Below the pieces are notes generated by a model. That model saw only the letters and a program-made list of their open reading frames with translations, did no database searches and had not been told where the DNA came from. The position numbers were made by a program, and so were the translations under genes. Below are positions 29,978 to 53,821 of a stretch of 64,000 bases of DNA, one piece after another. The stretch is from Haloplasma contractile (GTDB lineage: Bacteria > Bacillota_I > Bacilli_A > Haloplasmatales > Haloplasmataceae): the NCBI GenBank assembly GCA_016841945.1, contig JAENYC010000018.1, positions 1 to 64,000 of the forward strand. The letters run 5' to 3'. How positions within the stretch are numbered: the first letter of the stretch is position 1; each line of letters starts with the position of its first letter.

Positions 29978-31033
29978 ATGAACCAATATTGTGATACCTA
30001 TATTAAGATAAGTAAAGATGCTATAGTTCATAATGCAAGGTTTTTTAAAGAAAAAAGCAATAAAAAATTGATTGCGGTGATTAAAAGCAACGCTTATGGT
30101 CATGGATTAATTGATGTGGCAAATATTCTAAAAGATGAAGCCGATATCTTTGCTGTTGCCTCATTAGATAGTGCGATTACTTTAAGACAATCTGGCATTA
30201 CCTTACCCATACTTGTATTAAATCCTTTAAGTCCTCAATATGTGAAAAATGCAGTGGAATATGACATTATGATAACAGTTAGTAATCTGAAAGATGTTAT
30301 GAATATTGAAAGTATATATAAAGGAAAAGAAAGCATTCAGGTTCATCTAAAGGTTGATTCAGGAATGAACAGAATGGGGCTTAAAACAATAAAAGAGTAT
30401 AAGGAAGTTTTATCATTTATAGATAAAAGTTATGTTGTAGAAGCAGTAGGTGTTTATACACATTTTCATACAGCTGATGATAAAACATATAGTAAAAAAC
30501 AACAAGAAGAGTTTAAAGCAATCTATGAATCCTATCCTTACCCATTTAAATATATTCATTTATGCAGTACAGGTGCTACATTAAATGATTTAGATATAGA
30601 AGCATCAACCCACGTTAGAGTGGGACTTGGATTATATGGAATTTGTGATAGTAAAGAGGTCAAACCCGCATTATCTATGTATTCCAAGATCATGTTAAAA
30701 AAAGAAGTGTATCCTAATGAAATTGTTGGATATAATGCCAATTTTAAGGCAGAAAAAAACACATGGATTGGAGTATTACCATGTGGCTATTCTGATGGTA
30801 TTATAAGAAAAAATGTAGGGAGAAAGGTATATGTTGATGGGCATTATTGTGAGGTTATCGGGTCTGTCTGTATGAACTCAATGATGATAAAACTCCCACA
30901 TAAAGAGGTATCTGAAACAGTAGAGCTCATAGGACCCCACGTTACTGCTATAGAAATAGCAACATATTTAGAAACTATTTCATATGAAGTGACAACGATT
31001 CTTCCACCGCATATTAAAAGAATCTTCGTCTAA
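29978..31033 (+). CDS. alr: Alanine racemase
   Basis: Alr is a PLP enzyme that interconverts L- and D-alanine for peptidoglycan. The 351-residue protein has the PLP lysine Lys36 in IAVIKSNAYGHG, the pyridine-binding Arg region THVRVGLGLYGI near 210, the second-base Tyr in VGYNANFKAE near 247 and SVCMNSMMI near 295, the alr CMD-like motif with Asn for Asp. The length is about 20-30 residues short of the usual 370-390. ATG 29978 follows GGAGAG. It is convergent with mnmM, one base away, with no terminator between them. The serine/other racemase subfamily cannot be excluded, but alanine is likeliest. Confidence 0.88.
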   Translation: MNQYCDTYIKISKDAIVHNARFFKEKSNKKLIAVIKSNAYGHGLIDVANILKDEADIFAVASLDSAITLRQSGITLPILVLNPLSPQYVKNAVEYDIMITVSNLKDVMNIESIYKGKESIQVHLKVDSGMNRMGLKTIKEYKEVLSFIDKSYVVEAVGVYTHFHTADDKTYSKKQQEEFKAIYESYPYPFKYIHLCSTGATLNDLDIEASTHVRVGLGLYGICDSKEVKPALSMYSKIMLKKEVYPNEIVGYNANFKAEKNTWIGVLPCGYSDGIIRKNVGRKVYVDGHYCEVIGSVCMNSMMIKLPHKEVSETVELIGPHVTAIEIATYLETISYEVTTILPPHIKRIFV

Positions 31034-36218: not shown

Positions 36219-36247
36219 AAAAAGCACACTTTTAAGTGTGTTTTTTC
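36219..36247. terminator. Bidirectional terminator between leuS and murE
   Basis: AAAAGCACACTT pairs with AAGTGTGTTTTT, with one G-T wobble, followed by T on both strands. It touches the murE stop. Confidence 0.82.
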
Positions 36248-37731
36248 TACATATTGGCAATACTATATGTGAATGGTTGCTGATATTGTCTATTGAGATA
36301 GTTTTCAACAATTTTAATGTCATTATGTTCAACAATGTAACCATTGAATATTTCATAATTTTCATTACCTTTACCAGTTATCACCACGATATCATCAGGA
36401 TTTGCGATTTCAAGTGCTTTTTGTATCGCCTTTTTACGATTAGGAATGATACTGACTTTAAATACATCGTTAATTCCTTTGTAAATATCATGAATAATAT
36501 CTAATGTATCTTCACTTTTGGGGTCTTCACTTGTTAAAATAATGATAGATGCATGTTGATTTGCTACTTCTCCCATTAGTGGTCGTTTGGATTTATCCCG
36601 TTCGCCAGCGCATCCAAATACAAGGATTAAATTTTTTCTTTTGACATAATCTATATTTGTTAATAAACTATTTAAAGCGTTTGGTGTATGTGCAAAATCA
36701 ACGATAACAGTGTAAGGTTGTCCAGCAACAACAGAATGCATTCTTCCATCTATTTCATGAAGAAAGTGAAGTTTAGGTATTATTTCATTTATATCATATC
36801 CTAATACATGTAAACTAATAAGTGCAGCCACCGAATTATATACATTATAATCTCCAAATAGATTTAAATGAATGTTTTGATAATTTTGATCCTTTGTTAA
36901 TAAATCAAATGTTGTATCTCTAAATGAGGTGTTGATGTTTCCTATTTGAAAATCACAATCAACTGATTTTCCGTAGGTGATGACCTTAGCTTTTGTTTCC
37001 TTGATAATTCTTTTCGCGTAAGGACTATCAAGATTAATAATGGCGGTACTATCCTTATCAAGCATTTGAAATAATCTGAGTTTTGATAAGAAGTAATTTT
37101 CAATCGTTTTGTGATAATCTAAATGTTCATGGGTCAAATTAGTGAATATAGCCACTTTAAATTTGATATGGTCAACACGATGCAGGTCTAAACCTTGACT
37201 AGAGACCTCAAGGGTTGCATAGGGAATACCTTCTCCGACAATTTGAGTTAAATATTTGTTAAGCATAATTGGTTTAGGGGTTGTCAGTGGATTATTTTGG
37301 TGATATTGATTGAGTAAGAATCCGTTTGTGCCAATGTAGGCACAGGATTTAAAATGATCTATCAATTGTTTAATCACAAGTGCTGTTGTCGTTTTACCAT
37401 CTGTTCCTGTGATACCTATTAAGTTTAGTGATTTTGATGGATGTCTGAAAAAATTTCCACTAATTAAAGGTAGGGATGTTAACGTGTTTGAAACAATCAC
37501 ATAGGGAATATCAGTTTCAATTTGTTTACTAGCGACAATTAAACTTGGTTTAATAGATAAATCTTGAACTAAATCATGACCATCAAATTTATTCCCTTTA
37601 ATACAAATAAAACACGAATTCATTTTAATATCATTTGTGTTTTCGGTTAAGTATTCTATGTTAATAAAATCATGATATTGCTCACTTTTATAGAGTATTT
37701 TGACATCTCTTAAAACATCCTTGCTAAGCAT
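36247..37731 (-). CDS. murE: UDP-MurNAc-tripeptide ligase MurE
   Basis: MurE adds the third amino acid to UDP-MurNAc-L-Ala-D-Glu in the cytoplasm. The 494-residue protein has the ATP-binding GITGTDGKTTTA near 108, the TTPKP substrate loop near 149, LEVSSQGL near 178, FTNLTHEHLDYH near 196, and DGRMHSV near 329 at the ligase C-terminal domain. The specificity motif is SEDPKSED near 406, with Lys where meso-DAP-adding enzymes have DNPR, so the residue added is uncertain and need not be meso-DAP. ATG 37731 follows GGAGGGAG. It stands alone, away from a dcw cluster. With alr it argues for a cell wall. Confidence 0.92.
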   Translation of the reverse strand: MLSKDVLRDVKILYKSEQYHDFINIEYLTENTNDIKMNSCFICIKGNKFDGHDLVQDLSIKPSLIVASKQIETDIPYVIVSNTLTSLPLISGNFFRHPSKSLNLIGITGTDGKTTTALVIKQLIDHFKSCAYIGTNGFLLNQYHQNNPLTTPKPIMLNKYLTQIVGEGIPYATLEVSSQGLDLHRVDHIKFKVAIFTNLTHEHLDYHKTIENYFLSKLRLFQMLDKDSTAIINLDSPYAKRIIKETKAKVITYGKSVDCDFQIGNINTSFRDTTFDLLTKDQNYQNIHLNLFGDYNVYNSVAALISLHVLGYDINEIIPKLHFLHEIDGRMHSVVAGQPYTVIVDFAHTPNALNSLLTNIDYVKRKNLILVFGCAGERDKSKRPLMGEVANQHASIIILTSEDPKSEDTLDIIHDIYKGINDVFKVSIIPNRKKAIQKALEIANPDDIVVITGKGNENYEIFNGYIVEHNDIKIVENYLNRQYQQPFTYSIANM

Positions 37732-45998: not shown

Positions 45999-46196
45999 AT
46001 GATTCAAGTGAAAGTTTTTGATGAAGAACATGAAAAAGATCTTGAAGATAATGTAAATGAGTTTTTAGAAACAATAGATGAAGAAGATTTAATCGATATT
46101 AAGTATCAACTCAGTACTTTGTATGATTATAAAGAACAAATTTATTGTTATTCAGCATTAATTATTTATAAAAAGAATGATGAAGAGGATGACTAG
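45999..46196 (+). CDS. Cse60-like sporulation-associated small protein
   Basis: A 65-residue acidic protein. IQVKVFDEEHEKDLEDNVNEFL, then DIKYQL and QIYCYSALIIY, match the Cse60 family, a sigma-E-transcribed sporulation protein of Bacillus with unknown biochemical role. ATG 45999 follows TTAGGGG; the GTG at 45990 overlaps it. It sits 11 bases after yitT and 2 bases before the Nif3-like gene. The match is from memory of the family pattern, so moderately sure. With spoVM it supports a sporulating ancestry. Confidence 0.72.
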   Translation: MIQVKVFDEEHEKDLEDNVNEFLETIDEEDLIDIKYQLSTLYDYKEQIYCYSALIIYKKNDEEDD

Positions 46197-52031: not shown

Positions 52032-52661
52032 ATGATTGTCAATATTATCGCAGGAAGTCCTTTTAACTATGATATTGTAAAAGCCTATCCTGCTGATATC
52101 ACAATCGGTGTTGATTATGGCGCATATCGAGTAATAGAGAATCACGAACAACTTGATGCTGCTTTTGGTGATTTTGATTCTATTACCACCTATCAATTAG
52201 TTAAACTTTTAAATTCGTGTCCAAAAGTCAATAAGTATAAAAAGGAAAAAGATCATACTGATACCGAAATAGCACTTGATTATGCCTTGACGCTTAATCC
52301 AGATGTTATTCAATTATTTGGAGTCACGGGAAAAAGAATTGATCATTTTTTAAGTGTTCTTAATTTGTTTCAAAGAGTTTTTTCAAATGATGTTCAATTA
52401 TTTATTATAGATGAATATAATAAAATATATGTTAAAAAACCAGGCACTTATCATGTGAAGAAATCAAGTTATCAATTTTATTCATTTTTTGCTTATTTTA
52501 ATGATGTGAAAGACTTAACATTAACACACTTTAAATATGAACTAATCAACTATCATTTAAAAGATCAAGATACACGTTGCATTAGTAATGAAATCATAGA
52601 TAAGGAGGGGATTATTTCTTTTAAAGAGGGACTTTTATTAATTGTCGAAAGTCATGATTAA
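52032..52661 (+). CDS. thiN: Thiamine pyrophosphokinase ThiN
   Basis: ThiN transfers pyrophosphate from ATP to thiamine, giving TPP. The 209-residue protein has GVDYGAYRVIE near 28, GDFDSITTYQL near 46, the ATP/Mg pair KEKDHTDTEIALDYAL near 71, and GVTGKRIDHFL near 96. ATG 52032 follows AAGGTGTGG. It lies in the rpe-thiN-spoVM order seen in Bacillus. ThiT, the TPP-riboswitch transporter at 20582, feeds this enzyme. Diverged toward the C-terminus but complete. Confidence 0.93.
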   Translation: MIVNIIAGSPFNYDIVKAYPADITIGVDYGAYRVIENHEQLDAAFGDFDSITTYQLVKLLNSCPKVNKYKKEKDHTDTEIALDYALTLNPDVIQLFGVTGKRIDHFLSVLNLFQRVFSNDVQLFIIDEYNKIYVKKPGTYHVKKSSYQFYSFFAYFNDVKDLTLTHFKYELINYHLKDQDTRCISNEIIDKEGIISFKEGLLLIVESHD

Positions 52662-52726
52662 TAATCATAACTTTGTGGGTTCTTTCATAAAATATACTAC
52701 AGAGTTTAACTAAGGGGGTAATCTTT

Positions 52727-52810
52727 TTGAAATTTTATACCATTAAATTACCAAAATTTTTATCTGTGATTATAACTGCAATTTTACGTTTATTTAAACG
52801 TGATAAATAA
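52727..52810 (+). CDS. spoVM: Stage V sporulation protein SpoVM
   Basis: A 27-codon gene too short for standard gene finding. It reads, from a TTG start, MKFYTIKLPKFL, identical to the first 12 residues of Bacillus subtilis SpoVM, followed by a hydrophobic face and a basic end, LFKRDK. Pro9, needed for membrane curvature sensing, is kept. The ribosome site AAGGGGG lies seven bases upstream. It is exactly between thiN and rpmB, the Bacillus position, and is followed by a terminator. SpoVM is an amphipathic helix that sits on the convex forespore membrane and anchors SpoIVA, the base of the spore coat. Confidence 0.92.
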   Translation: MKFYTIKLPKFLSVIITAILRLFKRDK

Positions 52811-52814
52811 AAAA

Positions 52815-52850
52815 ATATGCTCCAATATAATTTTTGGAGCAATTTTTTTT
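52815..52850 (+). terminator. Terminator after spoVM
   Basis: TGCTCCAA (52818-52825) pairs with TTGGAGCA (52834-52841), followed by T8. Confidence 0.9.
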
Positions 52851-52903: not shown

Positions 52904-53596
52904 ATGAAAATTTGTTATCGAAATATCGGGATTATCCTTATTCACGGTTTTGGTGGGAGTATTAAGGAAGTTGAACCTTTATCTAGTAAATTATCTTTAT
53001 TAGGTTATCATGTAGAAACGCCTAAATTAAAAGGTCATACTGGGATGAGGAAAGATTTAAAAAGTGCAACTTATCTTGATTGGATAGAAGATGTAGAAAA
53101 AGCCTACTTATCATTAAAAACAAAATGTGATGAGATAGTTTTAATTGGTTTTTCTATGGGGGGTCTTTTGTCATTGCAAGTGGCTAATAAATTTAAGGTT
53201 AAAGGTGTGATTACCTTAAATACACCAATATACATCGGAAATATCTATATGATATTAAAGAAAATAATTAAAAATATTAATATATTTAATTTGAATCGGT
53301 TTAAAAGATTGTTAAGACTATTAAAATTATTACCACTAAAAGCTTATATTAACTTCAATCGTTTATTAAAAGACACTAAGAAAATACTACCTAATATTAA
53401 GTGTGACATATTGGTCAATCAAGCAATAGATGATGAAGTAGTCCGTTATAAAAGTGCCCATTATTTACACAATCAAGTTCAAAGTAAAAATAAAAAAATG
53501 ATGTTTTATAAAAAGAGTAACCACCTTATTTTACAAAGTGAAGTAGCCGAAGACGTAATTGTAGATTTAGTCAAATATATTGAGAATTTTAAATAG
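52904..53596 (+). CDS. Alpha/beta hydrolase, carboxylesterase-like
   Basis: A 230-residue alpha/beta hydrolase close in plan to Est30-type carboxylesterases. IILIHGFGGS near 11 is the oxyanion loop, GFSMGGLLS near 83 has the nucleophile Ser, QAIDDEVV near 180 carries the acid, and SNHLILQSE near 209 the His. A basic cap (KKIIKNINIFNLNRFKRLLRLLK) lies at 120-145. ATG 52904 follows TAGTGGTGAT. It is monocistronic, convergent to rpmB. The substrate is unknown, short-chain esters being likely. Confidence 0.82.
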   Translation: MKICYRNIGIILIHGFGGSIKEVEPLSSKLSLLGYHVETPKLKGHTGMRKDLKSATYLDWIEDVEKAYLSLKTKCDEIVLIGFSMGGLLSLQVANKFKVKGVITLNTPIYIGNIYMILKKIIKNINIFNLNRFKRLLRLLKLLPLKAYINFNRLLKDTKKILPNIKCDILVNQAIDDEVVRYKSAHYLHNQVQSKNKKMMFYKKSNHLILQSEVAEDVIVDLVKYIENFK

Positions 53597-53632: not shown

Positions 53633-53821
53633 TTAAACACGCTCAACTTTACCTGATTTTAAAGCACGAGCTGAAACATATACTTTTTTTGGTTTCCCAT
53701 CTACTAATATTCGAACTTTATGTAAATTGGCTTTCCATTTTCTTTTAGTAGTGTTTAACGCATGAGAACGTTTGTTTCCACTTGTCGTTTGACGTCCTGT
53801 AACGAAACATTTACGAGCCAT
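53633..53821 (-). CDS. rpmB: 50S ribosomal protein L28
   Basis: A structural protein of the large subunit. The 62-residue basic protein starts [27 protein letters not shown], the L28 signature, and ends with [10 protein letters not shown]. It has a single cysteine, so it is the non-zinc form. ATG 53821 follows AAAGGAGGT. It is on the minus strand between spoVM and asp23, as in Bacillus. Confidence 0.97.

What the first reader, a model, noticed from the sequence alone, without database searches (positions are those of the whole stretch)
52727..52810. Hidden spoVM gene between thiN and rpmB
A 27-codon reading frame with a TTG start has MKFYTIKLPKFL, the exact N-terminus of Bacillus subtilis SpoVM, and lies in its conserved slot. 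It is below usual gene-finding limits. With the Cse60-like gene at 45999 it implies that this lineage makes spores or descends from spore formers. The C-terminal half differs from Bacillus (more hydrophobic, ending LFKRDK), so curvature sensing may differ.
Basis: partly seen in the sequence, partly recalled or inferred. Interest (0 to 1): 0.72.

Follow-up and report, generated by a model that had tools for sequence, protein, structure and literature searches.

The report
SpoVM spore-coat anchor in Haloplasmataceae
The 27-codon frame is a real, ordinary copy of spoVM, the tiny protein that marks where the spore coat is built, and it sits in a bacterial family known from wall-less cells whose genomes all carry core genes for making spores.

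Summary
Confirmed. Window 52727-52810 (+) encodes a 27-aa SpoVM with a TTG start. It is the only SpoVM hit in the genome and exceeds the curated cut-offs of Pfam SpoV and NCBIfam SpoVM_broad. The gene is present in the same slot after thiN in all 8 genomes of the order. Shared contig sequence identifies the order as Haloplasmatales, family Haloplasmataceae. One congener was missed by the HMM and found by reading the slot. All 8 copies have a mother-cell (SigE)-type promoter with an invariant 14-nt spacer, 32-37 nt before the start codon, and a terminator follows the window copy. SpoIVA, SigE, Spo0A and SASPs are in all 8 genomes. G000 itself also has SpoIIGA, SigG, SigK, a spoIIAA-AB-sigF operon, SpoIVB and a SpoIID-family protein. 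So this is a functional-looking gene within a broad sporulation programme, not an isolated relic. The C-terminal half does differ from Bacillaceae: GG13-14 becomes S-V/A/S, and the basic residue at 17 is usually lost while one appears at 21. Pro9 and the helix's amphipathic moment are unchanged, so altered curvature sensing is not supported. 'Hidden' is overstated, since NCBI's own model would name it. New member of a known family; modest interest.

The parts
52665..52693 (+). SigE-type promoter TCATAAC-N14-CATAAAAT
   Evidence: Only match in the window, 0.04 expected; same architecture 32-37 nt before spoVM in 8/8 Haloplasmataceae
52712..52719 (+). ribosome-binding site AAGGGGGT, 7 nt before the TTG
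   Evidence: read directly; GGGGG core kept in all 8 genomes
52727..52810 (+). spoVM, 27 codons, TTG start
   Evidence: Pfam SpoV and NCBIfam SpoVM_broad above cut-off; orthologues in all 8 genomes of the order; pooled pN/pS 0.33
52818..52850 (+). intrinsic terminator (8-bp stem, T-run), ending a single-gene unit
   Evidence: two terminator-like sites (one per strand) found against 0.1 expected; GCTCCAA...TTGGAGC hairpin kept in G005, G001, G006, G007
52032..52661 (+). thiN (thiamine pyrophosphokinase), upstream neighbour fixing the slot
   Evidence: Pfam TPK_catalytic and TPK_B1_binding; found in all 8 genomes
52904..53596 (+). alpha/beta hydrolase gene between spoVM and rpmB
   Evidence: Pfam Hydrolase_4; motif matches in the slot of G005, G007, G006; none matched in G002, G003, G001
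53633..53821 (-). rpmB (L28), downstream marker of the slot
   Evidence: relatives with spoVM on the opposite strand just beyond it

Best explanation
It is the orthologue of SpoVM. [quoted passage not shown] The peptide would insert as an amphipathic helix into the outer forespore membrane, recognise its positive curvature with the help of Pro9, and recruit the SpoIVA ATPase to start the coat basal layer. Shown here: the gene, its conservation under purifying selection, the promoter-type sequence, the full-length partner SpoIVA and the rest of the core sporulation regulators. Inferred from B. subtilis: membrane localisation, SpoIVA binding and function. That the organism actually forms spores is inferred.
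For: HMM scores above curated cut-offs. Same slot after thiN in 8/8 genomes. Positions named as functionally important for B. subtilis in PMC5607322 are kept: P9, I6, I15, and K2 (R2 in two Haloplasmataceae variants). pN/pS 0.33. Promoter KMATA-N14-CATANNNT in 8/8; spoIVA has a parallel one, GAATA..-N14-AATATAAT, in 7/7. spoVM and spoIVA are both SigE-controlled in B. subtilis (PMC517825). Full-length SpoIVA with ATPase, middle and C-terminal domains. Spo0A, SigE, SigG, SigK, SpoIIGA, SpoIVB, a spoIIAA-AB-sigF-like operon (read from sequence), SASPs.
Against: No expression or spore data. C. difficile spoVM is largely dispensable (PMC5607322), so the importance of the gene may differ. spoIVA's -10 (AATATAAT) differs from spoVM's (CATAANAT), so reading of both by one sigma factor is likely but not proven. 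SpoIIGA is divergent (110.5 bits, cut-off 209.55) and SpoIVB falls just under its cut-off.
Confidence: 0.93

Rival explanations
1. A relic: spoVM is kept by inheritance in a lineage that no longer sporulates.
For: The order is known from wall-less contractile cells, and no report of spores in it was found in the held library. PMC10868615 warns that genomes with many spore genes may not sporulate.
Against: Purifying selection on the frame, an intact promoter in 8/8 genomes, SpoIVA, SigE, Spo0A and several SASPs in all 8.
Confidence: 0.05
2. A functional SpoVM whose membrane-curvature preference has shifted, through loss of GG13-14 and movement of the basic residue from 17 to 21.
For: Position-specific differences between families; mean helix hydrophobicity 0.86 against 0.65 +/- 0.09 in Bacillaceae.
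Against: Pro9 is invariant, amphipathic moment 0.63 against 0.62 +/- 0.03, hydrophobicity within the Bacillaceae range 0.49-0.91. G003/G004 in the same family keep R17. Ser13 and a non-basic residue 17 are also found in other Bacilli lineages, so the GG/R17 form may be the Bacillaceae speciality.
Confidence: 0.1
3. A chance short open frame.
For: Short ORFs are abundant in this AT-rich window.
Against: Profile E-values, synteny in 8 genomes, pN/pS and promoter as above.
Confidence: 0.001

Closest known systems
SpoVM of Bacillus subtilis / Bacillaceae (Pfam PF08183, NCBIfam NF033436 and NF011327)
   Same: N-terminal (M)(K/R)FYTIKLP(K/R), Pro9, length 26-28, position next to rpmB, one copy per genome, amphipathic C-terminal helix
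   Different: GG13-14 replaced by S-(V/A/S), basic residue 17 usually lost, basic residue at 21 gained, ends FKRDK; scores below the narrower model NF011327 (42.7 against 55) but above the broad one
   Same: Ser13, Ile15, no basic residue 17, same promoter architecture with 14-nt spacer
   Different: W11, mostly N21, ends FKKH or FKKK
SpoVM of Clostridioides difficile (PMC5607322)
   Same: Pro9 and key residues conserved across Bacilli and Clostridia according to that paper
   Different: Not compared residue by residue here

Membership tests
SpoVM | match to curated family models | tested here: met
   PF08183 35.9 bits (cut-off 20.6), NF033436 45.0 (cut-off 31); NF011327, the narrower model, not reached (42.7 of 55)
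SpoVM | Pro9, invariant across homologues and needed for curvature recognition | tested here: met
   P9 in all Haloplasmataceae copies; role from PMC5607322
SpoVM | conserved chromosomal slot (thiN - spoVM - rpmB) | tested here: met
   a hydrolase gene is inserted before rpmB in this genome
SpoVM | SigE-dependent transcription | tested here: inconclusive
   promoter-type sequence in 8/8, with SigE encoded in the genome; no transcript data
SpoVM | amphipathic membrane-binding helix | tested here: met
   computed moment 0.63, Bacillaceae 0.62 +/- 0.03; membrane binding itself not tested
SpoVM | genome encodes the partner SpoIVA | tested here: met
   TIGR02836 680.8 bits, three Pfam domains; all 8 genomes
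SpoVM | binds SpoIVA and positively curved membrane, needed for spores | not testable with these tools
   needs experiment

The most novel reading that the evidence does not exclude
In this family, known from wall-less shape-changing cells, SpoVM has been retuned (basic residue moved about one helical turn, GG pair replaced) so that it senses a different membrane curvature, or relies on a different SpoIVA contact, than in Bacillaceae.
Probability: 0.1. Interest if true: 0.5.

Novelty: new member of a known kind. Interest (0 to 1): 0.27.

Why it matters
NCBI still files Haloplasmatales under Mollicutes, and the family is known from wall-less contractile cells. A conserved spoVM under a SigE-type promoter, in genomes with the core spore programme and transpeptidase-domain proteins, predicts that these bacteria sporulate. 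That is directly testable in culture. It also gives a natural set of SpoVM variants showing that the Bacillaceae GG13-14 and basic residue 17 are not universal.

Tried and rejected
Chance ORF: rejected by profile scores and synteny. Absence in the congener G005: an HMM miss, not a loss; the slot holds LKFYIIKLPKFLSVIVTSILRLFKRDK. SigK instead of SigE for the promoter: the shared part of the -35 is ATA, while the trailing AC is not conserved, so SigE fits better (inference). Strict CATA-type promoter for spoIVA: absent; a looser -10 gave a conserved site in 7/7. Canonical KMATA-N13..15-CATANNNT before Bacillaceae spoVM: 0 of 77, so that promoter form is not universal. Structure prediction not attempted: the peptide is shorter than the 30-aa minimum.

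Full report
Observation. The frame at 52727-52810 (+) reads MKFYTIKLPKFLSVIITAILRLFKRDK from a TTG start, with AAGGGGGT 7 nt upstream. It scores 35.9 bits against Pfam SpoV (cut-off 20.6) and 45.0 against NCBIfam SpoVM_broad (cut-off 31). It is the only hit in the 3.43-Mb genome. It does not reach the narrower NCBIfam model NF011327 (42.7 of 55).

Where it comes from. The order has 8 genomes held. Contig C60 of G001 is 28,097 bases long, like CALFRW010000060.1, titled 'uncultured Haloplasmataceae bacterium', and locus L006 from it lies letter for letter inside L077 from that record. The window's order is therefore Haloplasmatales and its family Haloplasmataceae. Six full-length MreB proteins in G000 (five clustered on C65, one on C24) fit what I recall of Haloplasma (several mreB genes; from memory). 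The species is not established.

Conservation. The PF08183 search finds spoVM in 7 of 8 genomes. The eighth, the congener G005, was an HMM miss, probably caused by T5I: reading the slot gives LKFYIIKLPKFLSVIVTSILRLFKRDK after thiN. So the gene is in 8 of 8, always after thiN. Start codons are TTG in four genomes and ATG in four. Pooled pN/pS is 0.33, showing selection on the peptide. In 79 loci of other organisms fetched by rpmB alone, nearly all Bacillaceae by record title, 77 carry spoVM just beyond rpmB by the first pattern and one more, L050, has it with a non-standard first codon. Halolactibacillus halophilus (L084) has none; from memory, that genus is non-sporulating, which would make it a natural negative control.

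Transcription. TCATAAC-N14-CATAAAAT at 52665-52693 is the only match of its pattern in the window, 0.04 expected. All 8 Haloplasmataceae spoVM genes have a KMATA..-N14-CATA...T site ending 32-37 nt before the start codon, against 3.8% of background windows. The 5 genes of family f11 in the same class have a similar site with the same spacer. The strict TCATA form occurs 7 times in 333 kb of strand-bases of this family's DNA, each time before spoVM (most of those loci were fetched because they hold spoVM). spoIVA has GAATA..-N14-AATATAAT in 7 of 7 genomes, background 1.9%. In B. subtilis both genes are switched on by SigE (PMC517825). A terminator follows at 52818-52850, so spoVM looks like a single-gene unit.

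The programme around it. Present in all 8 genomes: SpoIVA, a SigE-like factor and a SigK-like factor each, Spo0A, alpha/beta SASPs, transpeptidase-domain proteins. SpoIID-family proteins are in 7 of 8, though that family is not spore-specific. In G000, NCBIfam names SigG, SigE and SigK (PRK models), Spo0A and SpoIVA above cut-off; SpoIIGA (110.5 of 209.55) and SpoIVB (301.1 of 305.25) are below their cut-offs but lie next to the expected partners, sigE and spo0A. An operon that reads as spoIIAA-spoIIAB-sigF followed by spoVAC-AD-AE-AF-like genes is on C10 (read by eye, not scanned).

Comparison with Bacillaceae SpoVM. Pro9, Ile6, Tyr4, Phe3, Lys7 and Leu8 are invariant in the Haloplasmataceae set. 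PMC5607322 names Pro9 as the only fully conserved residue, needed for curvature recognition, and K2, I6, I15 as functionally important. Family differences: GG13-14 becomes S-V/A/S; basic residue 17 becomes T/V (R kept in G003/G004); 21 becomes R/K. Helix hydrophobicity is 0.86 against 0.65 +/- 0.09 (range 0.49-0.91), amphipathic moment 0.63 against 0.62 +/- 0.03. 'Curvature sensing may differ' is a permissible guess without support. Other class members also lack GG and basic 17, so the Bacillaceae form may be the derived one; I did not test polarity on a tree.

What is known already. PMC10868615 treats Haloplasmatales among orders with vertically inherited sporulation and peptidoglycan genes, and NCBIfam holds a broad SpoVM model. 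No held paper mentions both SpoVM and Haloplasma. The finding is therefore a well-confirmed new member of a known family. It strengthens a testable prediction that this family sporulates.

Noticed in passing
window 36247-37731 (-) and 29978-31033 (+): MurE (DAP-type model, 476 bits) and alanine racemase are present, and transpeptidase-domain proteins occur in all 8 genomes, although a paper reports murEF absent from Haloplasma contractile (PMC7301438). The peptidoglycan may serve the spore cortex.
   Followed up: partly
G000 C65:99162-106437 and C24:33448: Six full-length MreB proteins, five in one cluster; similar clusters in relatives, but genus g4 (G003, G004) shows no full-length MreB.
   Followed up: no
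window 45999-46196: Cse60 homologue (PF10957, 95.2 bits).
   Followed up: partly
G000 C53:16291-16587 and C7:1042-1341: Two further Spo0A C-terminal-domain proteins besides Spo0A; all 7 relatives also have at least one extra.
   Followed up: no
L163, L167-L171 (family f16 of the class): Small genomes (1.1-2.1 Mb) with SpoVM of the form M(K/R)FYVIKLP..., -10 CATATA and in several a TAGTCTAAA block instead of the usual -35.
   Followed up: no
Bacillaceae loci L016-L095: None of 77 Bacillaceae spoVM genes shows the canonical KMATA-N13..15-CATANNNT promoter within 130 nt, unlike Haloplasmataceae and family f11.
   Followed up: no
window 52904-53596: Alpha/beta hydrolase gene inserted between spoVM and rpmB; motifs seen in the slot of four of seven Haloplasmataceae genomes checked.
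   Followed up: partly
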